Part shown: positions 2,910 to 21,600 of the stretch, in pieces
Position numbering within the stretch: position 1 is the stretch's first letter
Layout: each line of letters begins with the position of its first letter
NCBI GenBank assembly: GCA_018398765.1
Contig: JAHBMJ010005873.1
Coordinates: 34,515-57,856 of the forward strand
Source of the DNA: Chromera velia
Lineage: Eukaryota; Sar; Chromeraceae
Direction of reading: 5' to 3'
Length of the DNA: 23,342 nucleotides
Position numbers and translations under genes: made by a program
The notes under the pieces: model-generated
What the model saw: only the letters and a program-made list of their open reading frames with translations
Databases searched by the model: none
What the model was told of the DNA's origin: nothing

Positions 2910-3185
2910 CAGATAGCCGGACAGACAGAGTACGAGAGAGACATAATTGGGGGAGCGGCGCGGATAATTGAGCAGAGAGTCAGCAGAGAAGAGAAAACAC
3001 GTGCAGCTCATCGACAAACTAGATATGAGGAGAGAGGGGACGTGCACAGCAAAAGCATGTATGGCTGGGAAAGAGGGTCCTCAGAGATCGATCGCGCAAC
3101 TGATTGATTGACTGGATAATCGATCAACCCTCATGCTCATGTACCACATTGACTCCCCCAATCACCCACTCACTCACTCACTCAC

Positions 3186-4303: not shown

Positions 4304-4429
4304 GCATGCTCTCAATCAAGTGCAGGCAGACAGAGGTTTATTCATTTTTTTTTTTCATACAGAGAAAAAGAATTCTGTATGAAAGTAAACGCATGCTCTC
4401 AATCAAGTGCAGGCAGACAGAGGTTTATT
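4304..4429. repeat. Perfect 39-bp direct duplication flanking a palindromic filler
   Basis: The 39-bp sequence starting gcatgctctcaatcaag and ending ggtttatt is identical at 4304-4342 and 4391-4429 (period 87). The 48-bp filler between them shares its core with the filler at 20005-20076, but the duplicated flanks are unrelated. The duplication is therefore local to each insertion site. Confidence 0.95.
4343..4390. mobile_element. Palindromic mini-insert, shortened version
   Basis: The insert carries TTTCATACAG (4353-4362) and its exact reverse complement CTGTATGAAA (4375-4384) around a 12-nt loop. From 4364 to 4395 it is identical for 32 bp to 20043-20074. Compared with that copy it lacks most of the left palindrome arm and the centre. 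It has no coding capacity. Calling it mobile is inference from two copies in unrelated contexts, each with its own long flanking duplication. Confidence 0.55.
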
Positions 4430-4460
4430 TTTTCTTTCTGTGTCCCGCCTCGCATTCCTT

Positions 4461-4606
4461 TGCTCTCTCTATCTCCATGCACTTGGCCGTGCTCCTCTCT
4501 CATCAGTCTCTGTATCATCTTTCTGTCTGTATCGCTTTTATTTATTTTTTTATTTCTCTGTATTGGTGTCTGCTCTCTCTATCTCCATGCACTCGGCCGT
4601 GCTCCT
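4461..4606. repeat. 36-bp direct duplication around a 74-bp filler
   Basis: The unit starting tgctctctctatctccatgc occurs at 4461-4496 and 4571-4606 with one mismatch (cttgg/ctcgg). The T-rich filler lies at 4497-4570. The structure matches the other duplication-plus-filler loci, without a shared filler sequence. Confidence 0.9.
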
Positions 4607-4856
4607 TCGATCCTGCGTGAATATCTCTCTCTCTCTCTCTCTCTCACCTTGACCGACCGACCTTCGTGTTCTCCTTATTGTCCTTCTCCTCTAACTTGAG
4701 CATTTTGATTCCTTCTGTAATAGCCCCCACGCCGCCATTCTGTTTCTGCGGAGGGGGCGCCTGCAGGTGAGCAGGCAGGCAGGCAGGCAGGCAGGCGTGT
4801 GCGCATCGAATTTGAATGAGTACTCGTCAGCATGGGTGTTCAATCAGGAATCCAAG

Positions 4857-5805
4857 CAGACTATATGTTTCTTCTTTTCCCTCTATTTCTTCAGACAGAC
4901 TATATGTTTCTTCTTCTTCTCCCTCCTTTTCTTTATGAACACAACAGACAAAAAGAAAGAAAGAACAAAGACAAAAGAACAGCACCAACAATCAAACAAC
5001 GTGGGCAGGGGGCCCGAAAGGTGAGAGTTAAGCGCCCCTTGCCTCTCCACCTCCCGACAGACTTTCACGTGATCACTGGTTTCACACGCTACTCCTCTGC
5101 TGCTTCCACTCAAGACAAGAAAGAGAAGATAAGAAGACAAGACAAAAAAATTCAAAAAACAAAAAACAAAAAAAGAAAAAAAGAAACAGAACTGCACGCG
5201 GGGACCGGCACCGTCATGGTCTTTAGACAGGGGTGGGGGGGTGGGGGGGCGTCCCTGCGGAGGGGGATTCTTCTGATGCTGTGTCTTCGTATCTTGCGGA
5301 AGGACTCTTTCGGCGGTAACGAAACTCTCAAAGTCCCATACCGAAAGAGCGACGGTGCTGGTGGGGCCGAAAACCTTCTCCAGAACCTCTTCTCTCTCTC
5401 AGGATTCCTGTTCTGAAGGGGACGGGTTTTGATGCTCTTGGTCATGCGTGGAAGCTCGGTGGGGGATGTCGCTAGAAGCAGAAGCAGAAGCCGAAGCGGA
5501 ATTGGGTGCTGCGGCTGGGGCGGAGACGGGGGCTGGCATGGGATCGGGGGCGGCGGCTGCATTTGGCTCTGGCTCGTTCTCTTCTGTTCGGTGCAGCCTT
5601 CTTGATTTTCCTGGTGACGACCTTCTCCAGGGGGGTTGCGATAATCGTGGGGCTTCAGGGGGAGGGTCTTCGGAGGGAGCCGGAGGATTCGGCAATGCTG
5701 CTGCTATAGCTGAGGAGGAGGAGGAGGACGACGAAGAGGAGGAAGAAGAAGAGGGAAGGGAGGGATCGGGGAGGGGAGGGTTCGGGTCCAGACAGACAGA
5801 CAGAC

Positions 5806-5840
<35 letters not shown>

Positions 5841-5900
5841 CATCAGACAGACTATATGTTTCTTCTTCTCCCTTCTTTTCTTCATGAACAGACTATATCG
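4857..5900. repeat. Dispersed repeat cagactatatgtttcttctt (three full copies, one partial)
   Basis: The 20-mer cagactatatgtttcttctt is found at 4857-4876, 4896-4915 and 5848-5867, with a truncated copy at 5889-5898. The second and third copies stay similar for about 50 bp up to a tgaaca word (near 4942 and 5889). Each is preceded by CAGA repeats and followed by a pyrimidine tract. Coordinates span the outer copies; the sequence between is not repeat. Confidence 0.8.
5206..5708 (-). CDS. Proline/alanine-rich candidate coding block with an in-frame TGA
   Basis: On the minus strand a long pyrimidine tract ending CCTCAG (to 5709) is followed by an open frame rich in Pro, Ser and Ala (starting ALPNPPAPSEDPPPEAPR) that stops at a TGA ending at 5399. 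The same frame continues past the TGA with a more ordinary peptide (EEVLEKVFGPTSTVALSVWD, then FESFVTAERVLPQDTK) to about 5206. The two parts may be separate exons with a small intron over the TGA, or the second may be spurious. It could belong to the same minus-strand gene as 6252-6532, but I could not close the phases. No family is recognised. Confidence 0.3.
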
Positions 5901-6085
5901 TCTTTTCTTCACTTCACTTTTTCCGAATCGCTTCCTTTCTTTCGGACAGACAGGCAGACAGACAGACAGACACACAAACAAGCAGACACAGACAGACAGA
6001 CACAGACGAACAAACAGAGCCTTCCCTTCATTCTCTTCTGTTTTCTTCTTTGAACAGACAGACAGACAGACAGAGAGACATCAGA
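5780..6085. repeat. CAGA/GA microsatellite stretches
   Basis: Runs of cagacaga and gagagaga at 5790-5840, 5945-6010 and 6050-6090 alternate with pyrimidine-rich pieces. Frames through them are low-complexity and not credible as coding. Confidence 0.9.
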
Positions 6086-6251
6086 CAGACAGCGATGGAT
6101 CCGATCCTTAAGTAAGGCCGATCGATGGGTGATCACTACGCCTTGCCCGATCATTTTGCGACTTGCTAGATGCTTGCCCGACTCCCCACATGCACTCAAT
6201 TGATCAATCAATCGTGCGCGTGCATACCCACCCGTGCACCCACCCCCTCAC

Positions 6252-6532
6252 CTTCACGCGCCTCGACAAAGAAGAAAAAGAAGAAGCAGGTCGCTGTGTC
6301 GTCGTCGAGGAGGTCTCCTGCTGCGGCAGCTGGGCGAGAAGGAAGTTCTCTTTCTTCGTCAGCTCCATGTCCTGGAGCACCCTCTGCTCGGGTGTGGCGC
6401 TCGCCCAATGGCCCTCCCCCTTCTTGACCTCCTCCTTCTCCTCCCGCACTTTCTTGAGCTCATCCTCGATCGAATACGAAGAAGTATTCTCATGGACGTG
6501 CCGTTTCTTCGTCTCGTTCGACAGAGCCCACT
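6252..6532 (-). CDS. Candidate internal exon of an unidentified coiled-coil protein
   Basis: On the minus strand a GTGCAG acceptor precedes 6532, and a GTGAGG donor follows 6252. The 281-nt exon (two bases plus 93 codons) encodes a charged, helix-forming stretch containing YSIEDELKKVREEKEEVKKG and then ATPEQRVLQDMELTKKENFL, ending in a Ser/Thr-rich tail. The composition is far less repetitive than its surroundings and there are no stops, so I consider it a real exon. The phase at its 3' end is 0. The charged Lys/Glu segment suggests a coiled coil; I do not recognise the family. Upstream exons would lie beyond 6540 and were not found with confidence. It may be part of the same gene as 4163-4266 and 3186-3489. 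Confidence 0.55.
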
Positions 6533-6569
6533 CTGCACCACGCACACGCAATCAGCAACCACTGCAGAA

Positions 6570-6930
6570 CCCTCTGACTCACTCACTGGCTCACTGACTG
6601 AAAAACTGACTGAATGACACACTGACTGACTGACTGATTGACAGACACACAGACTGACTGACTCACTGACTGACTAAGCCTGACTGGCTAAGTGACTGAT
6701 ACACAGACTCACAGACACACTTACTGACTGGCTGACTGACTCACAGACATACAGACTCACACAGTGACTGACTTGCTGACTGATACACTGACTCAAACAC
6801 TGACTGACTGACTGACTTGAGTGAGTAAGTGAGTCAGTGTGTCGGTCAGTCAATCAGCCGAAAGACTGAGTGGCTCACTGACTCACCAACTCACTGACTG
6901 ACTGCCTGATTGACTGTCAGTCACTGACCG
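6570..6930. repeat. TGAC tetranucleotide repeat region
   Basis: The region is dominated by imperfect ACTG/TGAC repeats with ACAC interruptions. The repeat phase flips to GAGT/CAGT near 6820-6860, so the two halves are partly complementary. No gene was seen. Confidence 0.93.
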
Positions 6931-7432
6931 GCAGGAGGAGGGGGATGGCTGCTGCCCTGCGGCTCCGCTGAGGGAGACTGGCTGCTGTGCATCGATCGAT
7001 TGACCGATCAATGGATGGATCATGAACAGGACAGATAGGGGGGGCGTCTCTCTGCCCGGCTGCCTGCATAATTTAAATGAGAGAAGAAAGACACCATCGA
7101 TCAACCGCATGGAAAGCTGAAAGGCATGATAACGGAAAGGAATAGAACGCCTGTCCACACGCACGGAAGCAAGGAACGAAGGAAATAAGGAGGGCAGGAA
7201 GGGAGGACACCCAAGGAAGAAAGAAGAAAGGAGGACTCCCTTGCAAGCACGAAAGCCGAGAGATTGACTGCTTCAAATGCACTCGTTCGATCAATCGAAC
7301 ACAAAAAAGGGAAGGAATCTGACTCGAACAGATTGAAGACTACACAAGCACACGATCCAGGATTCCAAACAAACGAAGTCGGGCAATAGTTTCTTCTGGC
7401 ATCTCTCTGAGTGTGATCAGCAGCAAACTGAC

Positions 7433-7559
7433 TTTTTTTTGTGCTTCTCTCCAGCGGCGGAGGACGCTGATTGCGAAGAACGTCCGGCTGGTCCCGTGTC
7501 TTCGCTCGTTCACAAAGTTCCTCTCGAGGAATCGCGTGCGTCTCCAGATGAGTGTGCAA
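7433..7559 (-). CDS. Weak candidate exon ending in a GTCAGT donor
   Basis: An open minus-strand frame (containing THAIPREELCERAKTRDQPD and VLRNQRPPPLE) runs to an A-run followed by a GTCAGT donor at 7432. The donor form matches others in the window. I found no convincing acceptor or start, and no homology is recognised. It might be an upstream exon of the minus-strand gene at 6532 and below. Confidence 0.18.
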
Positions 7560-7599
7560 TTTAATTCAAAGAGAAACCAAAGGGTCCAGCTCAGACTAC

Positions 7600-8298
7600 A
7601 ATAGAGCCTTCACGACGTCACATGCACAAACGCACGCACTGACGCACTATTGACGCACTGAGGCGGTCAGAGAGGAACAGAGCATGCACTCAAAAGCTAG
7701 CCCGGGCTATGCCCGGCGTCTCTTTTCTCGATCCGCTTCCCCGATCATGCTGATCGAATTGTCGTGGATATAAATATCCGTGCATGCATGAGTTGTTCCT
7801 GGTTTTCCATCTATTTTTCGAAAAAAATGTGACCAGACAGAAACTGAAGCTGTGAATTAAGTGCCAAAAAATGTCCAAAAACTCAAGTCGCAACAAAGCA
7901 CTCGTCCTATACAGTTGCATGAGAGTGCATGGGCCAAGTAACTAAATAATTGATTGTCCCACCATAGCATATTTGTTGAGTTGCGGAGCTGCCATCAGTG
8001 GAAAAACAAAATTACATTTCTGCACAGAATCTGCCATGCGGGGCCGTGTTTTTCCCTGCTTTTTTTTTTTTGCGCACAACTTTTCCAGAAATTCCAAATT
8101 CGCTTTCCGGGACATTTTGCGGGGCCACGGTGTGCTTCGTCAAAAAATGTCAAAAACATGGCGAGTGAGTTCCTGGGATGGCCAGACTATTTTTTCACAG
8201 TTCCGACGCACATTTTACACATGGGAGTTGCCGCTATATTTCCAAAGGGCCCTAAACGGGGGCCCTAAACGGGAAAAAAATGCGGCCGCGAGAAAAAA
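7600..8298. other. No gene recognised; possible degenerate element
   Basis: The stretch is unlike its neighbours in that it is nearly free of microsatellites. It has a perfect 12-bp palindrome TAGCCCGGGCTA (7698-7709), two related words near 7865 and 8140 (caaaaaatgtc followed by aaaaac), T- and A-homopolymers, and a 15-bp tandem ccctaaacgggg (8250-8275). Short open frames at 7954-8302 are not supported. It could be the remnant of a transposable element or a 5' flank of the ORF at 8299. Confidence 0.35.
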
Positions 8299-8955
8299 AT
8301 GATTTACGCCATCGAAAACAACAACTTCAGTTCACCCATGTTCACCCACCTAAGAAACTTGAGTTCACAACAGCAACCTGAACTCTCATTCAGCCCATTT
8401 GATCTGCTGATTCTGAGTCTGCTGATCGAAGCACCTGAGAATATCTTCTCATCTCGGATACGAAGCAACACAATTCTCGATCAATCCTCGAAAATGCGCT
8501 CCTTCTTTGCAAATCTCTTCAAAAACTGCCAGGTCCCTGCACTGGACGAAAATGAGGTGCAGGTGATCCGCCACTCCCGCCACCCCCGCTACGCCTCCCA
8601 CGTGGCTCAGGCGACCCACGACTCGCTCCTTTCTCAGGGGCGGGTCCAGGAAGCCGAGTCCGTGGTGAGTTCCCTCACCGTCCACGACCTCACCGGTCCT
8701 CCTCCCTCCACCACCGCCCCCCGCACCATCAACGCTTCCCTCCCTGGTCTCCCCCTTCGCTTCTGCGCGTCGATTCCGGCGGCAGATATAATTTATTCTG
8801 ACATGCCGGAGGAGGTGGACGGGGTTCCTCGTCCCCTGAAGGACTTGTATAGAGTTCCGTCCCCTCCGTCCCCTCCTCCTCCTCCTGCTCCTGTTGCCGA
8901 TGAGGACTTCTGGTGCCTCTTCGGCCAAGAGAACGAGGGATACTTCGTCCACTGA
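8299..8955 (+). CDS. Hypothetical protein, intronless, Pro-rich C-terminus
   Basis: This open frame has 218 codons from the first ATG, ending TGA at 8953-8955. A second ATG at 8494 (residue 66, followed by RSFFANLFKNC) would give 153 residues and may be the true start, because the first 65 residues are compositionally different (Ser/Leu/Gln-rich). The body has no repeats and mixes charged and hydrophobic residues (VQVIRHSRHPRYASHVAQA, then AADIIYSDMPEEVDGVPRPL). A run of Ser/Pro follows (SPPSPPPPPAPV) and then an aromatic/acidic C-terminus (DEDFWCLFGQENEGYFVH). There is no signal peptide and no recognised motif. An A-rich leader precedes it and a stem-loop follows the stop. It could be a stand-alone gene, a last exon, or an ORF from an unrecognised element. 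The third-position preference for C and G in the downstream half supports real coding. Confidence 0.5.
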   Translation: MIYAIENNNFSSPMFTHLRNLSSQQQPELSFSPFDLLILSLLIEAPENIFSSRIRSNTILDQSSKMRSFFANLFKNCQVPALDENEVQVIRHSRHPRYASHVAQATHDSLLSQGRVQEAESVVSSLTVHDLTGPPPSTTAPRTINASLPGLPLRFCASIPAADIIYSDMPEEVDGVPRPLKDLYRVPSPPSPPPPPAPVADEDFWCLFGQENEGYFVH

Positions 8956-8960
8956 AGAGG

Positions 8961-8983
8961 CAGGGTAGCGCGTTGCTGCCCTG
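8961..8983 (+). promoter_or_regulatory. Stem-loop immediately downstream of the stop codon
   Basis: cagggtagc (8961-8969) can pair with gctgccctg (8975-8983), nine pairs including one G-U, around the 5-nt loop gcgtt. It starts five bases after the TGA of the ORF at 8299-8955, so it would sit at the start of the 3' UTR. No U-run follows. Function unknown. Confidence 0.4.
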
Positions 8984-9932
8984 AGAAAGGGAGTTAGGGT
9001 CTCATCCGCCCGTTCTTGCCCTCAAACCTCTCTCTGGCTCAAAAAAAAAGAAAAGCGAAAACTGACCCCTCTGTGTGCTCGTATGTTGGTTGCAGGCTGC
9101 TGACACTCTTCATTCCATGCACGGGGCCTTACTGAATCCCTTTGGGGTCAGTAAGTCGGCCGGTTGGCCCGTTTTGCGGTCTAACAGGTACGATCCTTTG
9201 TTGGGGTGGGGCGGTCTCTTTGATTCCTTTGGAGTAAAGAGGCAGCTCTTGTCTGTGTGCTTCTCTGGAAGGACAGACTTGAGTTTGTTGGCAGTGTGGA
9301 TTGAGCCTGGATGTTCTTTTTTTTTTACTCTCTGCTTAACCCTTTGGGTGATGCGTGAGTGAGGAAGGCAGAAGGGCGGGGAAAGAGAAAGCGAAAAACC
9401 TGGATGTCGAAGGATGGATGTCTGACCCCTTTGGGTGAGGACGGAAATCTGGAGGACGGAAAGGCAACAAGAAGCGAATCTCTGGTTAGAAAGCACACAG
9501 GAAAGACGAAAAAAAAAAAAAGCGCAACAAAAGAAAAGAAACAAAGACAAATTCACAAAACGGCAAGCGCGTGAAAAAAAGGGGCAGAAAAAAAAGAAAA
9601 GAGCAGATCGAGAGAGAAAGGAAAAAGAGAAAAGAAACCTTGAAGAAAGCCCAGAAAGGCCGCGGGCAAAAAAGAAAGAAAAGGGCCCTGGACAAAGACG
9701 CCAGATATGGGCAAAGGATGATTGATTCTCTCTCTCTTCTTTCTGAGCAACTGCAGCAACTGCAGCTTCCTCCTCTTCAGTTTTCTCAGAGTGACTTACT
9801 GACTCTTTTTCTTTCAATCTTGGCATCAGATGGACGAGTCAATTCAATTCTCTCCTCTGAGTGCAATACAAAAAAACCAAAAAAACAAAAAAAAATCAAA
9901 AAATCAACCCCCCCCCCAAAAAAACCCTTCGA
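8984..9932. other. No gene recognised; purine-rich low-complexity DNA with a repeated CCCTTTGGGG word
   Basis: A word close to ccctttggggt recurs near 9138, 9226 (as cctttggagt), 9341 and 9427, spaced about 85-115 bp. From 9495 to 9700 the strand is strongly A/G-rich, which opens long Lys/Arg/Glu frames on plus and Phe/Leu/Ser frames on minus; neither is credible. A short stretch at 9717-9860 (with a peptide SLLSEQLQQLQLPPLQFSQS) is more protein-like but is hemmed in by A-runs. Poly-A and poly-C runs fill 9870-9927. Confidence 0.45.
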
Positions 9933-10008
9933 TGCACACCACCGTGACGTGGTGAAGGGGCTTACGCCTCCTCAAACATTATTTTGTTGAGGCAACCAAG
10001 AGTGTGCA
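9933..10008 (+). other. Compact nested hairpin cluster, possible structured RNA
   Basis: Three complementary pairings fit in 76 nt. TGCACAC (9933-9939) pairs with GTGTGCA (10002-10008). CACCAC (9937-9942) pairs with GTGGTG (9949-9954) around CGTGAC. CCTCAA (9970-9975) pairs with TTGAGG (9987-9992). The first two overlap by three bases, so the closing stem is 4-7 bp. A further GGGGC/GCCTC hairpin (9957-9970) competes with the third. It does not match a tRNA (no T-loop) or the hammerhead core that I can recall. Confidence 0.35.
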
Positions 10009-10099
10009 GCTTGCCTGCCTGTCTCCTTCTTGGCTGTCTGTCTCCTTCTTAGCTGACTGTCTCCTTGCCTGCATGCCTGTTTCTTGACAGGACAAGAAG

Positions 10100-10135
10100 G
10101 TGCGTCGGTCTGTTGGGTGCATGCCTGTGGGCCTT

Positions 10136-10170
<35 letters not shown>
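10100..10170. repeat. CTCT microsatellite with flanking pyrimidine-rich DNA
   Basis: A (CT)n run of about 30 bases at 10137-10168 lies inside CTGT/CTTG-rich sequence leading into the minisatellite. Confidence 0.85.
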
Positions 10171-10176
<6 letters not shown>

Positions 10177-10420
10177 TTGCGTTTCAATCCATCTTCTCTT
10201 TCTCTGCATGCCTGTGGCGTCTCTGTTTTCATCCTTCTCATTTTCTCTTTTTGCCTCTCTCTGAATCGTTCGATCGCTCTGCAGTCTGCCTCTTTCTTTG
10301 CTTCAAACGTTTCCCTCTTCTTTGCCTCTCTTGCTTGCAGCAGGAGAGCCGAGCTCTCTTCTTCATCGTCCGCCCCCCCCTCTCTTCTTCGTCGTCATCG
10401 CGATTGCCCTGCACATTTCT

Positions 10421-11200
10421 TTCTTCGAGATCGCGTGGGAGTCCTTGCAAGAACGTCTCGGTGTGCATCCCCCCCCTTTCTTCGAGATCGCGTGGGAGTC
10501 CTTGCAAGAAGGTCTCCGTCTGCATCCCCCCCTTTTCTTCGAGATTGCGTGGGAGTCCTTGCAAGAACGTCTCCATCTGCATCCCCCCCCTTTCTTCGAG
10601 AGCGTGGGAGTCCTTGCAAGAACGTCTCCGTGTGCATCCCCCCCCTTTCTTCGAGATCGCGTGGGAGTCCTTGCAAGAAGGTCTCCGTGTGCATCCCCCC
10701 CCTTTCTTCGAGATCGCGCGGCAGTCCTTGCAAGAAGGTCTCCGTGTGCATCCCCCCCCTTTCTTCGAGATCGCGCGGCAGTCCTTGCAAGAACGTCTCC
10801 GTGTGCATCCCCCCCCTTTCTTCGAGATCGCGTGGGAGTCCTTGCAAGAAGGTCTCCGTGTGCATCCCCCCCCTTTCTTCGAGATCGCGTGGGAGTCCTT
10901 GCAAGAAGGTCTCCGTGTGCATCCCCCGCCTTTCTTCGAGATCGCGTGGGAGTCCTTGCAAGAAGGTCTCCGTGTGCATCCCCCCCCTTTCTTCGAGATT
11001 GCGTGGGAGTCCTTGCAAGAAGGTCTCCGTGTGCATCCCCCCCCTTTCTTCGAGATCGCGCGGGAGTCCTTGCAAGAACGTCTCCGTGTGCATCCCCCCC
11101 CTTTCTTCGAGATCGCGTGGGAGTCCTTGCAAGAAGGTCTCCGTCTGCATCCCCCCCCTTTCTTCGAGATCGCGTGGGAGTCCTTGCAAGAACGTCTCCG
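10421..11200. repeat. 57-bp minisatellite, 13 full units plus a partial
   Basis: Units begin at ttcttcgag at 10421, 10478, 10535, 10592, 10647, 10704, 10761, 10818, 10875, 10932, 10989, 11046, 11103 and 11160. All are 57 bp except the one starting 10592, which is 55 because of a 2-bp loss (gagagcg for gagatcgcg). Each unit carries a run of about eight C. Variation is limited to a few sites: cgtggga/cgcggca/cgcggga, gaacg/gaagg, ccgtgtgc/ccgtctgc. Because 57 is a multiple of three, several frames on both strands stay open (a 19-residue repeat such as IAWESLQEGLRVHPPPFFE). The 55-bp unit shifts the frame without a stop, which argues that openness is incidental. Confidence 0.95.
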
Positions 11201-12800
11201 ATGTTCGGATGCCTGGCTGGTTGACTGGATGACTGACTGCATGAGCTCTCGATCATGCGCGCGTGTTGTTTGTATCGCAATTCACTCGCTCAGCCTGCCG
11301 TTTGATCGTTTGTCTGCATGCCTTTGTTGGCCATCTTTGAACGTGTCTTTCTCGATCGGTGTTCAAACGGAATCATGGCGTGCCTGTGCATCACAGAAGC
11401 AACCTGAGAGATTCTGATCGAACAGCATGCGAGACAGAACAGTCCTTTCCGCCTGCATGTCCGTCTTCGGTCACTCATGTCTGAGATGCTCGTGTGAGAC
11501 GTTGTATATGAATCGATCGTTGCATATGGTATGCATAGGCTGGCCGGCCGCTGTCGTCGCCTGTCGATCGTTGTCTAGATCGCTGTATGAGTCGATCGTT
11601 CTAGCAATCGTTGCATGCCCGGTGCCGTGCCTTACATTGAAAATTGAAATTTCTATCATTTTTCTACTAGTTTTTCTAATATTTCAAGTTAACTTTTGTC
11701 CTAAAACTTTTGTTTTGACCTTTGTAAGGAGTTAAGGTTAGGATAGGGTAGGATTAATGTCTGGAGGATTGGCCGCAGGAGTCTTGCCCCAATGCCGAGC
11801 GTTCGACGTGCGGTGTCAAAGAAAAGCGCATATATACGCGTCAGACCTTCCTGGCCGGCCCACACAAGCTAAAAGACCTGTGCTGCAATTTGGCCCGCAA
11901 ACTGTTTACCGTTTACGTGGTAATCAATCGATTATACTATCAATCAGTTAATTTTAAACTGGATTTTAAATAAGATTAATAATTTAAAGCTAGTTTGCAT
12001 AGACTAGCATAGTCTAGCATATAGCATAGCATTTTAAATAGTAACTGATAAGTGATTTATTGGTGCACTATAAGACCTAGTAGTATAGATCACTAGTTGT
12101 CACCGTTTTGTTTTATAGAGGTTGCCCCTATAAACGATAGGGAGTAGTATTGAGATATATTGAGAAAAAGATGTATCAGGTGCTGGTGCCATTCGCCTGG
12201 GAAGGAGGGACCTGAAATTAAGTACCAAATCAGGTGTTTCTCTAGGTGTCTCTTTTGACCTAAAAACACTTGTGTTCTAAAAACCTTTTCTACTGTTTGA
12301 TTATTTGATTGATTGATTGATTGATACGCTCCGCACTAGGCTTTCCCGCTATCTAGGGTGCATGAGGTGTTCGAAGTCCGTGTTCGGTGTTCCAGATCAT
12401 GGACCAGATGCAAATAAGGTATACTAAGTACACTTTTCGTGACACATGTTTTCTCAGGTATACCTTTTCTGAATCCTATAGCAGAGAGTGTATACACGTA
12501 CTTCAGCGTAACTAGCAATGTAAATATAAATTTTAATATACCAATGTAAAGTTACCATGCTAGTTATTATTACTAAGTTATACCACGTAGAATCAACACA
12601 CTCTAGCGAATACTCCATCAATCTTGATCGTCCGACATCTTTGCACATTAAAAAAAAACTCTCATTAAACGAATGCAGCTGGTGTAACACACTCATGCAC
12701 TGCATCCCTCGATCCACATTGCTCACAACGTACTTAATTAATTCCTTCTTAATTCTCATCCATCGAGGCGTAGTCAGTCACTGCAGCATGCAGCTCATCA
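11201..12800. other. No gene recognised; AT-rich spacer
   Basis: Up to about 11630 the sequence is rich in GATCGAT and GCATG words. From 11640 to 12790 it turns AT-rich, with repeated TAGCATAG words (12000-12030), a GATT run (12300-12325) and no microsatellite blocks. Open frames are short and unsupported. The 3' UTR of the minus-strand gene ending at 12801 presumably lies in the right part. Confidence 0.5.
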
Positions 12801-15187
12801 TCATGATGTCCCGTTCATGACAGAGGGACACTTGCTCTGCGGCCAGCAGCCCAGCCAGGTGTTCCAAGACTGTTGCTTCCGTCTCCAATCCGTCTGCAGA
12901 GAGTGGGGCATCAGGAAGCCGCTCTCGATCTCGTCTGAGTAGGCCACCAGAGAGAAGGTCTCGGGGTCGATCTCCAAAATGACTGCATGCATGCAGGCAA
13001 AGTCAAAGCATTAGCATGAAGACGCATGAATAAATGGAGAAAGGGAATATCCGTCTGACTGACTTTCTGCATGACCATGTCACTGACTGCCGACCATGCA
13101 GCTGGCATGCAGACTTTCCTGCCTGCATGCCTTCCGGCTTGCTTGAGTGTCTGTCTCTCTGTCTCTCTGTCTGCCTAGCTGTTCGCCTGTGTGCCTAGTC
13201 TGCCTGCCTGTCCAGCTGACTTACTGACTGACTGACTCACTGACTGACTGACTTGCGCTGAGGACGCTCTCGATGACCAGGAGGACCTCCGACGAGTTCT
13301 CCTCCAGTGTCTGCGGGCTCTCTGCCCCCTTCTCCGTCTCCAGCTTTTCGTTCCACGCCTTCTCAAAATCACCCAACACGCCATCGAACGGGTTCTTGAC
13401 CCCCCCCTTCTTCTTCTCTGCATCTCCATTTGAACCCAGATCCACTCCTGTATCGATCAACGTCATCAAATGGGATGAGTGCCAATTCTCTGGATACCCG
13501 TCCGAACCCGCCCAGAATCTCTTCACAAACCGCAAATTGGTAAATGAATAAAAAGGGTCGTTGCCTTCCACAGGGCTGACTCCGTTGTTCGTCGACAGAG
13601 AGACGTTCAACGGGACCTCCCACACCGCGTAGCTCCCTTTCCTTCTCTTCTTGTTGCTCTTGCAGTCCCGCACCTCCCCCATAAACCCCCTGTCTCCCTT
13701 CTCTCTTTCCTCCTCCACTTCGTCCTCACAGTCTGCGTCCCCCTCCTCTGATATCCACGCGATCGCCTTGGTCCACCCGTCCTCCTCTGCCACCACAAGG
13801 AAGAGCTGGTCGGTCGAGGGGTGGTACACAAGCTCTGCCTGGTTGAATCCGGCGATGATACCTGCATGCCGAGAGAGATGGAAGGAGAACATGGACGTGA
13901 TTGATTGAGCCAGGTCGACAGGTAGGAAGGCAGGAAGAACGGAAGCAAGCAGTCATGCACACGAGTTGTCAAAGAAACCAGAAAGAGAAGAGCTTTGCCA
14001 GGCACACACTCTGCGTTCCGAGCCGCCCCTCTTCTCACTGAATTTGCATGCATGTCCACAGACAAACGTGAAACCAGCCGAAAAGAATCCTGAGTGAACA
14101 ACACAGTTAGGAGCATTGCGTGGATCCCCACAGAGATTTCAGATTGACACACAAAAAGAAAGAAGGCAGAATGGAAGGACGGGTAGATCACAAAGAAGCT
14201 CGGGAAAATTCCACAAGGAAACCCCTTACTTACCTTCGCACTGCGTCTCTGCAGGAAACTCGGAGCCGTCCAGCGGACCCCCACACCACTCTGCGATCTG
14301 GATGCCCTCCCCCGTCTCCGACCAGCTGTCGAACAACCACATCCCGGGGGGAATCAGTTCTTCCACCTCCTCAGGGGAACTCGCGTGCAGGAGGTACTGG
14401 GCACTCCCCCCGAGGGCCCAACGGTCGTCGATCCAGGTCACAACGGGGCCTCCCAACAGACCCCTGCATCCAGGAATGCATCCATGCATGCCACAAAGCA
14501 GCGCATTGTATATGTGCACAGTCACAACAGGGCATTCCGAGAAAGCCATGCATGACATGCAAAACTCCTTTCGTGTAGTGAGCATTGAAAAGTCCAAGAG
14601 AAAGGACTGCAGACCGACCTCCTCTCTCGCGTGCCGTAGTAGAAAGTTCGCTTGAAGGTCAGATCTCCCGTCTCCAGATCGACCTCAAACAACTGCATGC
14701 ACGCGGGGGGGGCGGGGGGCACAGAATTGATTCAGGTGTGCTCAGAAGCGTAGTGTCTATATACGTAGCCATTGTAAGAAATCTGTCTCTCTCACGGTTT
14801 GTCTTCTGATTGTCTGCTCATTTTCTCTACCCACTTCCGTATCTTTGCAGTGAAGTATCGTTACTTCTTTTTTCTTTCCTTTTTCTCTGTTTCTCTCTCT
14901 CTCATTGCATTTCCTTCCTTCCTTCCTTACTAACTTACTTACTTACTTGCTTACTTACCTGCATGGTCCCATCTGGGTAAGTGGGGGCAGAGAAGGCGAG
15001 GTTGCCAGAGGGGTTCGTCCATATGCCGTGGAGCTGGTCGGACACCCCGGGGAAGGCGAAGGTGTTCGTCTTCTTGTTTGTGCGGGGGTCGATGAGGAGA
15101 ATGCGGTCGTCCGAGTAGACGTTCCAGTACACCCAACTGTACAAGCAATACACGCATGGGACTGTGAATTTTCCTTCTGTTTTGTTT

Positions 15188-15221
<34 letters not shown>

Positions 15222-17896
15222 GCACACCCACCTGTACATGCATGTATAGATGGTTGGGGGTATACATATGTTCACGATCTATCTTCGTCTTTCGGTCTTT
15301 CGAGGACACTCAAAAAAACATGCAGTGTGTTTCACAGCTAGAGACTGCCAATCACCCCGTCTCGTCTTTCTAACGAAAGAGCAGACATGCGCAAAGAAGC
15401 CTATGCACACGCAGACAATCGGTCATACAGGAAAGGAAACACATCAAGGACAGAACAGACAGACACACACACACACACACACACACACAGGTCTCCATGA
15501 ATTCAGACGACCCACCGCAGGCCATTGAGGTGTCCGTCTCGTTTAAAGTTCCCGACCAGGGTGGGTGCGTGCAGCTGCGTCTGGGCCATCGTGATCATCG
15601 GAGTGAAGAACCCGACCTGCTTGCAGGCAGGGAGGGAGAGAGGGAGACAGACGGAAGAAGAGAGTGAGGGAGGGAGGGATCCTCAGGGGGCTCTACAGGA
15701 TGAATCAGAGGAAACAGAAAGGTCGACAGGCGAAGTGCTCGCCGCATTTAATTCTGCCAACAGACAGCGACATGACAGAAATCGATCGGGGAGCTGGGGG
15801 CAGGCAGGAATGTAGAGAGAGAAATTAAGCGAATTAAGTGAAGCATGCATACAGACAATTAATTTGCATGCAGGTCGAGGTTCATTGACCCGGTCGAGGA
15901 GCTCTTTTTCTTTCTTTTCCCATACACCTCTTTGCAAACCCATGCAGGCGGACAAAGCGTGAGTGTACACACACACACACACACACACACACAGACGTAC
16001 GGACGCTAACATGTCTATACACATGTACATATACGTATACACGAGAGTGGGCGCGCATCGCGCGCCGAAGAATTTCGGACAACGTAGTACGCGGACGAAC
16101 CGAGTATAGAAGCGCACACAAACTTTGTGTTTTGTCAATTCTGGCGATTCGGCTTCCCAAAAACGTAACGCGCTGAGAGTGAGATTGGACTATAGAAGAG
16201 TAAGACATATACATGCACCGTCTGGCGGTTGACTGACGTTCTGTCCCCCGTCGACTTCCTCTGGCAGTTTGAAGACATAGTCTGACTTGGGCACGATCAA
16301 GATCTCCTCGACCAGCTTCACGTCCGCCGTCTCCTTCTCCCAGTCCACCTCGGAGACCTCAATTATCATCAGACTGCACGGCACCTGCAGATTTTTTCGT
16401 TTTCATATGTACGTATGTACTTTGTATTCTATGTATTCTATCTATGTATGCACAGTTTACCTCGGAGACCTCAATGATCATCAGACTGCACGGCACCTGC
16501 AGGCAGATTTGGGCGGACGGCAGTCATCGGTTGGGATGGCCAAGATGCGTTGGTTGTCTTCGAAGGGAAGGGAAGGAAAGGAAAGTGTTCGGAGAGGCCT
16601 ACCAGAACAGATGGTAAAAAGAGGACAATTGTCTCGAAGAAAAGTTTTGGTCCAATCCTGCTACTCCCTGACAGAATTTGTTTGCATACCCACCTCTTGA
16701 CACAAAATATTCACTAACCTGTAGCGGTCCCCCTGCAGCGATGTGGAATGTCTTCCCGTCATCCATTGCCCCCACATGAACGTTTTCATATGTATGTATG
16801 TATGTATGTATCTATGTATGTATATATGTATGTATGTATGTAGGTATGTATTTTGTCTGTATGCACACTCACTCACTAACCTGTAGCGGTCCCCCTGCAG
16901 CGATGTGGAACGTCTTCCCGTCATCCATTGCCCCCACATGAACGATGGGTCCGATTGGGTGAACAGTCGGGAGACTGAGCAGGTTGTAGATGATCATTTG
17001 GTGCGTGCGTGCGTTGACGAGCGCAAAGTCCGCAAGAAGAATGTCCCCGTAGGCGTACCAAATGTCGCCGTCAATGTCCCCACCCCCCCCGGAGAGTTTG
17101 CCCTTCAGGGATAGAGGGGCAAACCTTTGGAGAGGGTCCCAGTGCTCCCTCACGTCCCTCCGGGCCATGTACGCTGGGGTGTCCTTGTCAATGTATCTGC
17201 ACGTATATACATTTATTTTCATACAGAATGATGCATACATTTGTTTTCAGACAGAATGATGCATACATGCACTTATCTTCATACAGTATGTATACGCAGG
17301 GGTGTCCTTATCGATGTATCTGCACGTACACAGGAGAAGGGGGAGGAAGCCGTTCTTTCGGCAGTGTGTGAATCGTTAGCGTGTGTTGTAGACTGTTTGC
17401 CATGCGTGTGGTGGGGCTCTGGGGCTGTTGCCCTGTACATGCATGCTCATGTGTGCAGATGGTGTGACAACTACGCCTCAATTTACACGGATGTCTTTCG
17501 TGCAAGTAGAGTGCATCTGAAGACACGTACGCATACGTGTACGTACTTTGGCGGGTAAGCTTCCAGGAAGGGCGGGAGCTGTTGCCTGAACTCATTGGTC
17601 CACTCTGGCAAGTACTTGCCGAGCTTCTGTATCTCCTTCACGCGGTCTCTCACAGCGAAGTATTCCTCCACAGCCCCGTAGGAGGTCGGGAACTCTTTTC
17701 GGATCTCCAACGCTACCTGCTTCCTCATCGCCCCCTTCGCCCTCTCTGCCACCTCTCCTTCTTCTCCAGAGAGACCCTCGAACAGAGTGCCCAAGCCCTT
17801 CAAGTCGAACTCGAATGCACCGTTGTCGGAGGAGGCTTGCGAGAGCAGGATGCTCATGTAAAGCACCCCCAGCGGAATAAAAGAAAGGGAGCGCAT
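12801..17896 (-). CDS. Nine-exon gene: predicted secreted 728-aa protein, propeller-like, function unknown
   Basis: Exons, in transcript order: 17896-17547, 17196-16881, 16384-16238, 15616-15516, 15136-14959, 14692-14619, 14463-14234, 13861-13253, 12982-12801. All introns are GT-AG, all phases close, and the total is 2187 nt including TGA. The start ATG at 17896 opens a classic signal peptide (RSLSFIPLGVLYMSILLSQA), so the product is probably secreted or enters the endomembrane system. Residues 24-116 are helical and charged. Residues 117-630 show repeated short strands with W, Y, D and G turns (GDIDGDIWYAYGDILLADFA, WVYWNVYSDDRILLIDP, HGIWTNPSGNLAFSAPTYPD, QAELVYHPSTDQLFLVVAEE), which look like beta-propeller blades. 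Exon 8 carries an acidic and then a basic insert (DCEDEVEEEREK; CKSNKKRRKG). No enzyme motif is recognised. Exons 2 and 3 have partial duplicate copies next to them. The chain is very likely; the fold is inference. Confidence 0.82.
13140..13252. repeat. CTGT and TGAC tetranucleotide tracts inside intron 8
   Basis: Intron 8 of the minus-strand gene begins (minus sense) with GTCAGTCAGTCAG repeats directly continuing the donor, and further on contains CAGA-type repeats (plus-sense ctgtctgtc). The repeat therefore starts at the splice site itself. Confidence 0.85.
14925..14958. repeat. GTAA tetranucleotide array beginning at a splice donor
   Basis: In minus sense the intron after exon 5 opens gtaagtaagtaagcaag and continues with further gtaagtaag words before turning into GGAA repeats. 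The consensus donor is thus repeated at least six times. Confidence 0.9.
15190..15222. repeat. CAGA microsatellite in intron 4
   Basis: About eight CAGA units lie just outside exon 5 on its acceptor side, in an intron of the minus-strand gene. No function is evident. Confidence 0.9.
15464..15490. repeat. CA microsatellite in intron 4
   Basis: A (CA)n run lies about 25 bp beyond the donor of exon 4 of the minus-strand gene. A second (CA)n run is at 15968-15993, in intron 3. Confidence 0.9.
16347..16502. repeat. 44-bp duplication of the exon 3 acceptor region around a 68-bp filler
   Basis: The 44-bp copies at 16347-16390 and 16459-16502 differ at one base. In minus sense each contains the CTGCAG acceptor and the first 38 bases of exon 3 (VPCSLMIIEVSE). 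The upstream copy could act as a decoy acceptor or a 36-nt mini-exon, because it is followed by GTAAAC. Using it would add 12 residues in frame. The filler 16391-16458 contains cgttttcatatgta, shared with the filler at 16783. Confidence 0.93.
16711..16944. repeat. 72-bp duplication of the exon 2 end plus donor around a 90-bp TATG filler
   Basis: Copies at 16711-16782 and 16873-16944 differ at one base. Each holds, in minus sense, the last 64 bases of exon 2 (VHVGAMDDGKTFHIAAGGPLQ region) and eight bases of the intron with the GTTAGT donor. The transcript meets the true exon first, and the second copy lies in intron 2 as a decoy exon end. The filler 16783-16872 is mostly TATG/TGTA repeats. Confidence 0.95.
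17170..17328. repeat. 36-bp duplication of the exon 2 acceptor region around an 87-bp filler
   Basis: Copies at 17170-17205 and 17293-17328 differ at three bases. In minus sense each has the GTGCAG acceptor and the first 27 bases of exon 2 (YIDKDTPA). The filler 17206-17292 holds three near-copies of a 20-mer related to the right arm of the palindrome at 20041-20064 and its tail (in minus sense, CTGTATGAA followed by ATAAAYGTAT-like bases). Confidence 0.9.
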
Positions 17897-18658
17897 GATA
17901 ATTGAATGGCCGGTATGTGCAGAGATCTTCTGAGAGTTTGGGCCGGAAAATTTTGCTGGGTTGAAAGTGTATGGTGTTGTTCAGCAGCCGTACACTCAAG
18001 GAGACGAACAGCTGCCTGCATCGAAAATGAAAGAACAAAAATTACACATCCCACCAGATTCTGTTGATGCCAGGTAAAGACATGTGCTGTAGAATCATTG
18101 ACAGGTTTTGTCCTCACTATATAAGCGTCCAGTACGTTTTGGCAACTCACGTGCTGAGCATATTGAAGTCGATCTGCAATGATTTCTGCACGCAGAATTC
18201 GAAGCCTGAATCGAAGGTCAGGCAAATCTGCATGAATGTTGCAGTGCATGAACGCGTGGCGGCGCGGGAGTTCGCGGAGTCGGCCCAACGCGTACCAGCT
18301 AGCTAGGTTTTAGGAGCCCCACGCGCCGCCGCGGGCCACATGATCCCCTCGTCGCGCGGATCGTGTTGCTTTGTGTTGCTTGCTGCCATGCACCTTGCTT
18401 CAATGCATGGTTGTCTTCACATGTGAGAGACTATGAGAGTCTCGATCAGCCGACTTCGGACAAAGGCTGACATACTCGATAACTAGCTGCTGCCTGATTG
18501 ATCTTATTGCATGACCCGTCGCCAGAATGTTTATCCTCAAGACTTTCTGAGAGAACAGACAGATCCTTAAATTCGGACTCTCCACCGAGGTATATATGTA
18601 GATTGAATCTTTTCCTTCCTTTTCTTTCTGTTCACCCGTGAATCCACGCACTTCAGCA
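17897..18658. promoter_or_regulatory. Shared intergenic region of a divergent gene pair
   Basis: This 762-bp interval separates the ATG of the minus-strand secreted protein (17896) from the ATG of the plus-strand TBC-like gene (18659). A TATATAT word at 18591-18597 lies about 60 bp before the plus start. A TATATAA word near 18118-18124 is about 220 bp from the minus start. In minus sense TTTCGATGCAG near 18018 could be the acceptor of a 5' UTR intron. The centre (18300-18360) is GC-rich with CGCG words. Core-promoter assignment is inference. Confidence 0.45.
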
Positions 18659-21600
18659 ATGTCGTGCGGTCTACTTCCTCTCGCTGACGACCTTGTTGAC
18701 TTTTTTGTGGACGGCGTGTTGAAGGGCGATCCAGTCTTTCTTGAATGCAAACGCTCGGCCATCGACTTGGCAACACACTTGGAAAAGGAGAAGGACAAGC
18801 CAGAGAGACAACAGAGAGGGAAGGCCGAGAGCGCGGAGGCAGATGCGCAAGAGCAAGCACGGTTGTTGGAGGCGGTCAACGGAGTTGTGCAGAGAGAGGA
18901 ATTCGCCAACCACATAAAAAGCGCGGCGTACCGGTTTTACCTCGGCACAGAGGGACTCAAACTCAGGCGCAAAGCCCGTCTCTGTCTGGGAGGCCCTCAA
19001 GGTGGGTAGAGGGAATGTGTGTGTGGGGGGTCAAGAATGGCAGAGAGAAAGGAAAAGAGGGAGAAGGAAGTAGGGACCGAACGAAGAAACGGCAGAGGGA
19101 CTGAAAAAACCAAACAAAGAAGGAATGGCAGACAGAATGAAGCAAGGCAGGACGGAGGAATGCAAGAAAAACAGGAGGCAAGGAAGTCTATCTACGCAGC
19201 CTTTTGTGGAGAGAAAAGGGTATAAAGAAAATACGACTTCGGAGGGCCGTGCGTCCACGTATCCCTGTTTACGTCCCTGTCCGTTCGTTCATTTGCCCGT
19301 CCGTCTATCCCTCTGCCTGCAGGTTCACTCGGCATACCTGAGTCAGTGTTCCAACAACCCAAAACGGGTGAGTGGGTATCTGGGAGTGCAGGTAGGGGTG
19401 GAAGTGTTTTTTCTCAAATTTGTATTTCCTTTTCCCTTCTCCGTTCTCTCATTTCCCTGTTCTGCTTTGACGTCCTGTCGCCCCGCATCAAGCACTCCAG
19501 TGTCTTGGCATCAGTCCTCACACTCGATCAGCCCTTCAGTTACCCTCTCTCTGCCTTTCTCTTTGTGTCCCTTTTCTTCCTCTCCCTCAACCCTTTCCCC
19601 CCCTCCCCCGGGCCCTCTGTGACTCCGTCCGTCCGTCCGTCCGTCCGTCGGTCTACGCATCATCGATCGATCAGCAATCCAGATGGATCCGCCTGCCTGC
19701 CTGCCTGCAGGGTCCTTTGATGCCCACGCAGGGCTGATCGATGCGAGGTCGAAGTGGGCAGCGCGGCTGCGGAAGGTTCGTGTTAGAAAGAAAGGGGAGG
19801 GGTGTGTGGTCGTTTGGGAGCTCAAATGTGCAAACCCTCTGCCTCTGAGGGTCCTCCTCTCTGCTTTGGAGTGAGTGAGTGAGGTGGCAGGGAAGAATTA
19901 AGTGACCTCAGTTTGGTTGGTTTGTCTTCCTCCTGTGTTTTTTCTATTTCAGCTGGTGGAATGTCTGTCAGGGAGGGACCTGGCACACCGGAACGAACTT
20001 TTTGTTTTTGCTTTCATACAGAATTCTTTTTCAGGGAGCGCTGAAAAAGAATTCTGTATGAAAGTAAACGCATGAACTGTCAGGGAGGGACCTGGCACAA
20101 CGGAACGAACTTTTTGAGATTTGGCTTCTTTCTGAACCTTGCGTCTTCTCTCTTATTTCTCTGTTTCTTTTCAGTTCCTTCCAGCGTGTCTTGCTGCTTG
20201 GCCATTCTTTTCTTCTGTCGCTTTTTTTTTCTTCCTCCCTTCCTTTTGCTTCCCCTTCCTTTCTTCCGTCTTCCTTTCCGGAATTGCGACTTCTCTGCAT
20301 TCATTCATTCATTCATTTTCAGACCGAATTCTTCTTTCTGTCTTCCTTCCTTCCAGGAATTGCGACTTCTCTGCATTCATTCATTCATTCATTTTCAGAC
20401 CGAATTCTTCTTTCTGTCTTCCTTCCTTCCAGGAATTGCGACTTCTCTGTATTCATTCATTCATTTTCAGACCGAATTCTTCTTTCTGTCTTCCTTCCTT
20501 CCAGGAATTGCGACTTCTCTGCAGGGAGCAGACGCAACCTGTGCTCAGGTCTGTTTGTCTGCTTAGTTTTCTGGCTGTGCATGCGTGGGTGTGTCTGCTT
20601 AATTGTCTGTTTGAAAGTCAGGGGAGCGATTTGGGAGGATCAGTCAGGTCGGGAGGATTTGTTCAGGCAGTTCAGGAAGAAAGAAGAATAAATACAACAT
20701 GTTGGCAGGTGAAAGGGAGAGAGGGACTGGTTTTGCTAAACGACGCGAAAGAGAAAACGTTTACACATGACGCAGGTCTATTAGTATTTATCTGACGGCT
20801 CAGGACATGCATCAAACAAATAAATGATGCACGCATGGACGCATCCAAATAAGTGACGCACGCACATATATTCATCTGACGGCTCAGTACATGCATCAAA
20901 CAAACAAATAAATGAATGAATGTGTGATTGCAGAGTGAGGCAACCAGAAAATGAACCAGAAGAAGTGCAGACACGGCCCCTTGCGGAAATGCCGGAGCTC
21001 TACCAAGTCCGTCTTTTGTCTCGTCTCGTTTCATTGTTTTTCCTCCCTCCCCCCTTTGCTCTCTCTGGCTTTCTGTCTCTCCTCTCGCGTGGAGGGCTCG
21101 AGGCCTAGGTGTATCCCATGCAACCAATAAGTCGGGGGGGGTTCCCCTTCCTTCTCTTTCTCTCTCTGCTGTTTGGTTTCGCAGAATCCAGTCTAACTCT
21201 TGTGGTTTTTTTTTTTGTTCACACAAGATCTTCCCTTTGTTTGAGAATATCCTTAGAGATGTTTTTATTCGTCCGTGAACCCAGACTCACTTTCTTCTTT
21301 CTTCTGCCTCTCTTTTTTTTCATCTTCTCATCGACTCTTGGCTTTTGCTTCCGTTCCTTTTTTTTTTTGCCTGCCCTCTTTCTTTCTTTCTTTCTTTCTT
21401 TTCTTCCTTTCTTTCTTTCTTTCTTTCTTTCTTTCTGTTTGTCTGTCTGCCTGCCTGTCTGTCTGTCTGTCTGTCCGTCTTTCTTTCTTTCTTTCTTTCT
21501 TTCTTTCCTCTTTTCATCCCTCCCTCTGCACTGCAGGCCGCTCTCTCGTTCCAGCCCTCCTACTCCCCGTCTGTGCGTCTGCCTGGCTCCCTCGGGCTTT

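What the first reader, a model, noticed from the sequence alone, without database searches (positions are those of the whole stretch)
4343..20076. The same palindromic mini-element at two sites with different long flank duplications
The filler at 20005-20076 is a perfect 24-bp inverted repeat with a 6-bp centre. The filler at 4343-4390 matches its right arm and tail for 32 bp and keeps a 10-bp stem, but lacks the middle. The flanking duplications (39 bp and 40 bp) are unrelated to each other. A shared core with site-specific duplications is the signature of insertion rather than segmental copying. At 48-72 bp it would be among the smallest mobile units, and target duplications of about 40 bp would be exceptional.
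Basis: partly seen in the sequence, partly recalled or inferred. Interest (0 to 1): 0.85.

Follow-up and report, generated by a model that had tools for sequence, protein, structure and literature searches.

The report
Palindromic mini-insertions with long duplications
The genome of the alga Chromera velia carries many tiny mirror-image DNA insertions, nearly each between two copies of its own 20-60 letter landing site, and they look as if a short template had been copied from both ends of a staggered break, which fits none of the mobile-DNA classes it was compared with here.

Summary
The window is from Chromera velia CCMP2878. CTTTCATACAGAATTC (at most 1 mismatch) has 1,441 genome hits; the reversed control has 3. 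The first 97 of 100 listed hits are 59 single sites and 12 tandem arrays; 57 of the 59 have a flanking direct duplication. Over a wider 76 sites 73 do, against 17 of 163 shifted controls. Median length is 39 bp, most are 20-58. Another subfamily gave 20 of 20, one of them weak.
Anatomy: the outer ends are usually the start of one ~45-nt arm, pointing inward. Arm starts lie at positions 1-12, ends scatter over 8-45; arms also occur head to tail. Centres are mostly private and already scrambled where the two duplicates are identical. The two arms usually share a subtype; junctions show microhomology.
Best reading: primed copying of a ~45-nt template from both 3' ends of a break staggered by 20-60 nt, then end joining. 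No template gene, enzyme or larger relative was found. A second palindromic family of unrelated sequence has the same design, on fewer sites.

The parts
4304..4342 (.). left copy of the 39-bp target duplication, site A
   Evidence: identical to 4391-4429
4343..4390 (.). mini-insertion A: short degenerate left arm, long right arm GAAAAAGAATTCTGTATGAAAGTAAAC
   Evidence: exact 32-mer shared with site B; arm parse F(9-24) R(2-34)
4391..4429 (.). right copy of the 39-bp target duplication, site A; starts GCATGC, 6-nt microhomology with the arm end
19965..20004 (.). left copy of the 40-bp target duplication, site B
   Evidence: 39 of 40 identical to 20077-20116
20005..20076 (.). mini-insertion B: perfect 24-bp inverted repeat 20011-20034 / 20041-20064 with 6-bp centre
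   Evidence: genome-wide 30-mer relatives
20077..20116 (.). right copy of the 40-bp target duplication, site B
17170..17205 (-). one copy of a 36-bp duplication that holds an intron 3' splice site (TGCAG|ATACATTGAC); the copy used in the deposited gene model
   Evidence: protein P0001 reads YIDKDTPAYMARR from this copy
17206..17292 (.). third member of the family in the window (TTTATTTTCATACAGAATGATGCAT units)
   Evidence: same subtype as the copies
17293..17328 (-). other copy of that duplication, inside the intron of the deposited model
20785..20909 (.). 41-bp duplication (20785-20825, 20869-20909) around a 43-bp filler 20826-20868 that carries second-family words GGACGCATCCAAAT and TGACGCACGCA
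   Evidence: letters; family words

Best explanation
A high-copy family of non-coding mini-insertions in the nuclear genome of Chromera velia. Each copy is made anew at its site. Steps, with status: (1) both strands of the target are cut or nicked 20-60 nt apart (inferred; the duplication itself is shown); (2) a free 3' end, often helped by 1-8 nt of microhomology to TGCATGC(A/G)TTTAC, primes copying of a ~45-nt template that begins there and ends ...CTTTCATACAGAATTCTTTTTCAGGGAGCGCTC (arm polarity, constant starts, variable ends and microhomology are shown; the polymerase, perhaps a reverse transcriptase copying a small RNA, is inferred); (3) the same happens from the other side, usually with the same template variant (subtype concordance shown); copying may restart and give head-to-tail arms (shown); (4) the two extended ends are joined, in some copies at the self-complementary words GAATTC and AGCGCT, giving an inverted repeat with a mostly private centre, and fill-in leaves the long direct duplication (joining mechanism inferred); (5) the new unit duplication+element can expand to a tandem array (arrays shown, the order of events inferred).
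For: Long duplications at 73 of 76 single sites against 17 of 163 shifted controls, 57 of 59 in the systematic set, 20 of 20 in another subfamily, 19 of them with score 21 or more and one with only 15 bp. In a parse of 72 sites the outermost piece points inward at 65 left and 61 right ends; 54 of the 63 sites with two or more pieces are inward at both ends; 125 of 126 outer arms start at arm positions 1-12 while ends scatter from 8 to 45. Among the 55 outer arms that lack the 16-mer used to find the sites, 54 still start at 1-12. Head-to-tail arm pieces at 38 of 72 sites by a loose parse that accepts pieces of 8 nt, so an upper bound; clear in L032, L049 and L057. Microhomology mean 1.51 against 0.46 in 2,000 shuffles (highest 0.95) and 0.71 in simulated blunt joins; 4 nt or more at 9 of 73 ends (12%) against 2.1% simulated. 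Subtype of both arms agrees at 28 of 43 sites, shuffle mean 16.4, highest 26 of 5,000. The gapped palindrome TTTCATACAGN{1,31}CTGTATGAAA has 228 occurrences, control 0; the 50 that were listed fall into 40 sites with 35 different centres. Of 22 sites with identical duplicates 1 has both outer arms of 43 nt or more, so scrambling seems to come with the insertion, not with age. In 30 loci (23 sites) with the 30-mer no common sequence continues the arm.
Against: No template RNA or its gene, no enzyme and no polymorphic empty site was found. A 3' tail as in LINEs and SINEs was not seen at the 82 of 144 ends where the arm abuts the duplication; the other 62 ends carry extra or unclassified bases. 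Target duplications of 20-60 bp exceed those of the retroelements I read about (L1 15 bp, ZfL2-1 5 bp, abstract of PMC4245944; Penelope elements 8-10 bp or none, passages of PMC3846280). No motif at the cut sites beyond A at the first flank base in 43% of 136 contexts. Subtype concordance would also follow if a preformed palindrome were inserted. 18 of 72 sites do not show the inward/inward arrangement, and 26 of 73 ends have no microhomology. Local duplications without this element also exist: of 78 such events in 171 kb of fetched sequence 39 hold the core, 6 a half and 33 neither.
Confidence: 0.5

Rival explanations
1. A palindromic miniature DNA transposon (MITE) of ~90 bp, moved by an unknown transposase that makes very long, variable target duplications; centres decay because perfect palindromes are unstable.
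For: Inverted repeats at both ends, subfamilies, insertion with duplication; some copies contain the perfect palindrome CAGGGAGCGCTCCCTG; both arms usually share a subtype.
Against: The first arm base at the junction ranges over arm positions 1-14; duplication length is broadly variable; 21 of 22 sites with identical duplicates lack full arms on both sides; head-to-tail and single-arm copies. By eye, the listed hits hold four inward-facing pairs 250 bp to 10 kb apart (C57, C280, C410, C433); the ends fetched have their own duplications, while the far end on C433 (38727/38773, itself a pair) was not fetched. The lists are cut at 100 places, so a larger relative is not excluded.
Confidence: 0.2
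2. Passive capture of small DNA pieces (organellar or other filler) at double-strand breaks with long overhangs, by end joining.
For: Microhomology, extra bases at some junctions, variable duplication length. The window also has a duplication with a unique filler (22323-22373: 1 genome hit).
Against: Captured pieces should go in either orientation; 54 of 63 sites with two or more pieces are inward at both ends. One sequence family recurs at many sites. Nuclear mitochondrial inserts in primates show duplications in 17 of 71 cases and of 1-11 nt (passages of PMC2567098). No core word in the five fetched cox1 loci L059-L063; the rest of the organelle sequence was not examined.
Confidence: 0.15
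3. The primary event is a tandem duplication or replication slippage around palindromes that already existed; the elements are by-products of minisatellite turnover.
For: Arrays with unit = flank+element at 12 loci of the systematic set; local duplications without the element are common in this genome (33 of 78 events; window 2829-2910 without filler).
Against: Flanking duplications differ between sites while the element recurs, and 59 single sites outnumber the 12 arrays. Slippage does not bring the same ~45-nt arm to many unrelated places.
Confidence: 0.1
4. Introner: the elements create introns on insertion.
For: TGCAG is in 27 of 76 duplications (either copy) against 39 of 303 flank controls; AGGTNNGT in 8 of 76 against 6 of 303. 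Several duplications hold what I read by eye as a splice site.
Against: In the two genes read, the insertion lengthened an existing intron by duplicating its splice site (window 17170-17328 with P0001; L074). Known introners have 3-9 bp duplications (passages of PMC9860276) or 3-5 nt (passages of PMC7789003).
Confidence: 0.05

Closest known systems
Target-primed reverse transcription by LINEs with 5' inversion (twin priming) and template jumping
   Same: One constant end at the priming site, variable truncation at the other end, inversions, concatenation, microhomology, target duplications (general features recalled).
   Different: Template of only ~45 nt, both target ends primed as the rule, duplications mostly 20-58 bp, no tail at abutting ends; no core word in 10 RT loci.
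MITEs / TIR DNA transposons
   Same: Short non-coding, inverted repeats at both ends, subfamilies, target duplication.
   Different: No precise ends, mostly private centres, duplication long and variable, no autonomous relative found in capped lists.
Introners of algae and Amoebophrya
   Same: High-copy short inverted-repeat elements with direct repeats; Amoebophrya is also an alveolate (passages of PMC7789003).
   Different: Duplications mostly 20-58 bp instead of 3-9 bp; the two gene cases read extend introns rather than create them.
Penelope-like elements with inverted pseudo-LTRs and palindromic junctions
   Same: Inverted and tandem copies of one terminal sequence, palindromes at junctions (passages of PMC3846280).
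   Different: 8-10 bp duplications or none there; only one weak GIY-YIG match in this genome.
Filler DNA and numts at double-strand breaks
   Same: Short captured sequence, some flank duplication.
   Different: Fixed polarity, one sequence family, near-universal long duplication here.

Membership tests
MITE / TIR DNA transposon | terminal inverted repeats | tested here: met
   inward arms at both ends at 54 of 63 sites with two or more pieces, 54 of 72 in all
MITE / TIR DNA transposon | short target duplication of fixed length | tested here: not met
   quartiles 27, 39, 48 bp at 72 sites
MITE / TIR DNA transposon | precise, constant ends | tested here: not met
   first arm base at positions 1-14 at the 82 abutting ends, most often 1, 5, 8, 9
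MITE / TIR DNA transposon | copies share internal sequence | tested here: not met
   35 different centres at 40 listed sites; those shared are simple joins of the arm
MITE / TIR DNA transposon | autonomous partner with same ends | tested here: inconclusive
   none among the listed hits; lists are cut at 100 places
SINE / LINE-type retroelement | constant 3' end, variable 5' truncation | tested here: met
   54 of 55 unselected outer arms start at positions 1-12; ends scatter 8-45
SINE / LINE-type retroelement | A-rich or simple 3' tail at the priming end | tested here: not met
   82 of 144 ends have the arm directly at the duplication; the other 62 were not classified
SINE / LINE-type retroelement | 3' end shared with an RT-encoding element | tested here: inconclusive
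   no core word in 10 RT loci; 1,759 first-look RT candidates, 150 scored
Penelope-like element with endonuclease | GIY-YIG endonuclease elements abundant in the genome | tested here: not met
   one match, E 4.6e-4, of 14 candidates
Introner | insertion creates a new intron | tested here: inconclusive
   two readable cases lengthen an existing intron; no RNA data
Numt / passive filler | either orientation of the captured piece | tested here: not met
   54 of 63 sites with two or more pieces inward at both ends

The most novel reading that the evidence does not exclude
Chromera has an insertion machine of a new kind: a ribonucleoprotein with a fixed ~45-nt template that extends both 3' ends of breaks staggered by 20-60 nt, rather like a telomerase working on internal breaks, and lets the self-complementary products anneal. 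At least two templates of unrelated sequence (family 1 and the TGACGCACGCAAGGACGCATC family) have been used, and the machine lengthens introns and seeds minisatellites over the genome.
Probability: 0.3. Interest if true: 0.95.

Novelty: new variant of a known kind. Interest (0 to 1): 0.8.

Why it matters
If right, it is, as far as I know, among the smallest insertion families, with much longer target duplications than the element classes whose figures I could read. It would give a natural record of staggered breaks, show how minisatellites are born (duplication+element is already a two-copy repeat), and explain how insertions near exon edges survive: the long duplication copies the splice site. 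It makes a direct test possible: look for the template molecule and for new insertions in culture.

Tried and rejected
Larger element with the same ends: pairs of hits on C311 and C433, both 1,356 bp apart, looked like one but are independent insertions, each with its own duplication; the inward pair on C57 (862 bp) too. LINE partner: 10 RT loci carry no core word; one locus that I take for a LINE (L070) runs into a TAA/TGA simple repeat. Penelope partner: one weak GIY-YIG match. Target motif: none apart from A at the first flank base, 43%, where the depletion of T may be an artefact of how the edge is set. Filler at 22323-22373 as a second high-copy family: rejected, one genome hit with up to 3 mismatches. 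RNA families at gathering score and tRNAs in the window: none. Pfam on 10 mechanical ORFs: nothing. Papers: ten searches, seen as listings, showed no title or abstract that describes this family; I read passages of PMC4501334, PMC3846280, PMC9860276, PMC7789003 and PMC2567098 and the abstract and outline of PMC4245944. Most subscription papers are not held and supplements were not readable, so this is weak evidence of novelty.

Weak points: the 76-site set mixes systematic hits with sites chosen for long arms. The systematic set is 97 of the first 100 listed hits; three hits at two places (C433:38727 and 38773, C440:6529) were not fetched. One search had given 58 single sites and 56 with a duplication, because one site (C316) was counted under another locus; one search recounts 59 and 57 (52 at score 18 or more). 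L091 runs into an assembly gap. Shifted controls include some real tandem repeats. The 16 loci flagged as clustered were left out of the length statistics. Searches use 72 sites: 4 of 76 were dropped (three below score 14, one duplication of 79 bp); one search uses 68. In the second family 4 of 9 independent loci (L139, L141, L142, L143) showed no duplication and L140 only 12 bp; some are probably chance 13-mers (reversed control 32 against 387 hits). Splice sites were called by eye from sequence, except where the deposited protein P0001 bears them out. Identification of RT loci as Ty3-like or LINE-like is mine from memory.
Full report
What the window is. The window lies in an assembly of 177.8 Mb and 4,040 contigs. 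A 137-aa frame of a minus-strand gene matches a Chromera velia CCMP2878 protein at 99% identity over 77% of the query. Chromera velia is a photosynthetic relative of apicomplexans; [quoted passage not shown]

Check of the observation. Site A has a 39-bp and site B a 40-bp flanking duplication, unrelated to each other, and the two sites share an exact 32-mer.

Scale. The 16-mer with at most one mismatch has 690 and 751 hits on the two strands against 0 and 3 for the reversed word. The exact 13-mer TTTCATACAGAAT has 789 and 861 against 3 and 0. Since a palindrome gives two hits and arrays give more, and 97 listed hits made 71 sites, I estimate roughly a thousand sites (inference).

The duplication is the rule. 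I fetched 97 of the first 100 listed hits, in contig order. They are 59 single sites and 12 arrays; 57 of the 59 reach a local-alignment score of 14 or more between the flanks, 52 reach 18. A wider set with sites picked for long arms gives 73 and 67 of 76; the same procedure at shifted places in the same loci gives 17 and 16 of 163. Duplication length is 8-79 bp, 69 of 76 between 20 and 58; quartiles are 27, 39 and 48 at 72 sites. I expected copies of the subtype GCATTTATTTTCATACAGAAT to behave alike and fetched 20: 19 have a score of 21 or more, the last has 15 bp only. The duplicates are identical at 22 of 72 sites and below 90% at 6, so insertion seems to have gone on for a long time.

Anatomy. 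The arm reads TGCATGC(A/G)TTT(A/T/G)CTTTCATACAGAATTCTTTTTCAGGGAGCGCTC; further subtypes occur. In 30 loci (23 sites) found with the 30-mer no common sequence follows it; in some it turns back on itself, CAGGGAGCGCTCCCTG. A parse of 72 fillers into arm pieces gives FR 24, FRR 10, FFR 9, F 7, FFRR 4, FF 4, RR 3, FFFR 3 and eight in other orders (F = inward from the left). The left-most piece is F at 65 of 72, the right-most R at 61 of 72. Of 126 outer pieces 125 start at arm positions 1-12, and they end anywhere between 8 and 45; among the 55 that do not contain the word used to find the site, 54 still start at 1-12, so this is not an effect of selection. Head-to-tail pieces occur at 38 of 72 sites, 11 of the 22 with identical duplicates; the parse accepts pieces of 8 nt, so these are upper bounds. 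Of these 22 sites one has both outer arms at 43 nt or more. The gapped palindrome TTTCATACAGN{1,31}CTGTATGAAA has 228 occurrences, control 0; the 50 listed fall into 40 sites with 35 different centres.

Junctions. At 82 of 144 ends the arm abuts the duplication; the first arm base is position 1, 5, 8 or 9 most often. Microhomology between the target end and the arm averages 1.51 nt at 73 ends, against 0.46 with target ends shuffled and 0.71 in a simulation of blunt joining; stretches of 4 or more are 9 of 73 against 2.1% simulated, none at all at 26 of 73. No motif marks the cut sites except A at the first flank base, 43% of 136 contexts.

Both arms tend to come from one template variant. Positions 11-12 of the arm agree between the two arms of one insertion at 28 of 43 sites (shuffle mean 16.4, highest 26 of 5,000), position 8 at 24 of 30 (mean 15.0, p 0.0008).

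Mechanism. Shown: insertion with long duplication, polarity, constant start and variable end of the arms, some reiteration, microhomology, shared variant, scrambled centres already at sites with identical duplicates. Inferred: staggered cutting, primed copying of a short template from both sides, annealing at self-complementary words, end joining. This works like target-primed reverse transcription with twin priming, but membership in the LINE/SINE kind is not shown. A miniature transposon with a very unusual transposase remains the main rival. Against any reading tied to this element alone: in 171 kb of fetched sequence, which is enriched for the element, 33 of 78 local duplication events hold neither the core nor half of it.

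Genes. Duplications hold TGCAG, which I read as the usual Chromera intron end, at 27 of 76 sites against 39 of 303 control stretches. In the window gene the insertion at 17206-17292 lies between two copies of TACGTGCAG|ATACATYGAYAAGGACACCCCWGCGTA; the deposited protein uses the downstream copy. In L074 the duplication ends at a likely 5' splice site (CTCAG|GTCGGT) of a gene that I recognise, from memory, as succinate dehydrogenase flavoprotein subunit; the rest of the intron lies beyond the second copy. Whether the excess reflects targeting or survival of insertions whose duplication saves the splice site is open.

Minisatellites. At 12 loci of the systematic set the unit duplication+element is repeated, with periods of about 70-107 bp and 2-6 cores.

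A second family. L138 holds 40-bp duplications around TGACGCACGCAAG...CTTGCGTGCGTCA. This 13-mer has 387 genome hits against 32 for the control; the gapped palindrome has 61 occurrences, control 0, again with variable centres, many of the form AAGGACGCATC(A/C)AAATTT. Of 9 independent loci fetched, L147 has a duplication of 50-52 bp, L146 one of 57 bp with the word lying across its edge, L144 and L145 of 18 and 17 bp, L140 only 12 bp, and 4 have none. The window has a likely member at 20826-20868. So the design is probably not tied to one sequence, on thinner evidence than family 1.

Literature. What I read gives duplications of 15 and 5 bp for LINEs (abstract, PMC4245944), 8-10 bp or none for rotifer Penelope elements (PMC3846280), 3-9 bp for introners (PMC9860276), 3-5 nt for Amoebophrya introners (PMC7789003) and 1-11 nt in 17 of 71 primate numts (PMC2567098), the last four from passages. 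None of these passages described this family.

Noticed in passing
window 16347-16502 and 16711-16944: Two more duplications (44 and 72 bp) with fillers holding TTTTCATATG, in the same minus-strand gene region, each spanning a likely splice site; perhaps older or divergent relatives.
   Followed up: partly
L138 1-1475; L144, L145, L147; window 20826-20868: Second palindromic mini-insertion family with arm TGACGCACGCAAGGACGCATC(A/C)AAATTT, also between duplications; L138 holds insertions of both families.
   Followed up: partly
window 22323-22460: 51-bp duplication holding TTCAG around a semi-palindromic 36-bp filler that occurs once in the genome.
   Followed up: yes
window 4461-4606: 36-bp duplication around a 74-bp pyrimidine-rich filler.
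   Followed up: no
window 2829-2910: Perfect 41-bp tandem duplication with no filler.
   Followed up: no
window 10300-11323: Minisatellite of 57-bp units (CTTTCTTCGAGATCGCGTGGGAG...), 14 overlapping matches.
   Followed up: no
window 20270-20500: Three 72-76-bp tandem units each holding TTTTCAGACCGAATTC, a possible decayed relative of the arm.
   Followed up: no
window 16857-16880 (minus strand): The deposited protein A0A0G4IDW5 ends GPLQVSE, apparently by reading across a likely 5' splice site (CTACAG|GTTAGT); the gene may go on at 16380.
   Followed up: partly
genome G000: 1,759 first-look reverse-transcriptase candidates (150 scored), but only one weak GIY-YIG match.
   Followed up: partly
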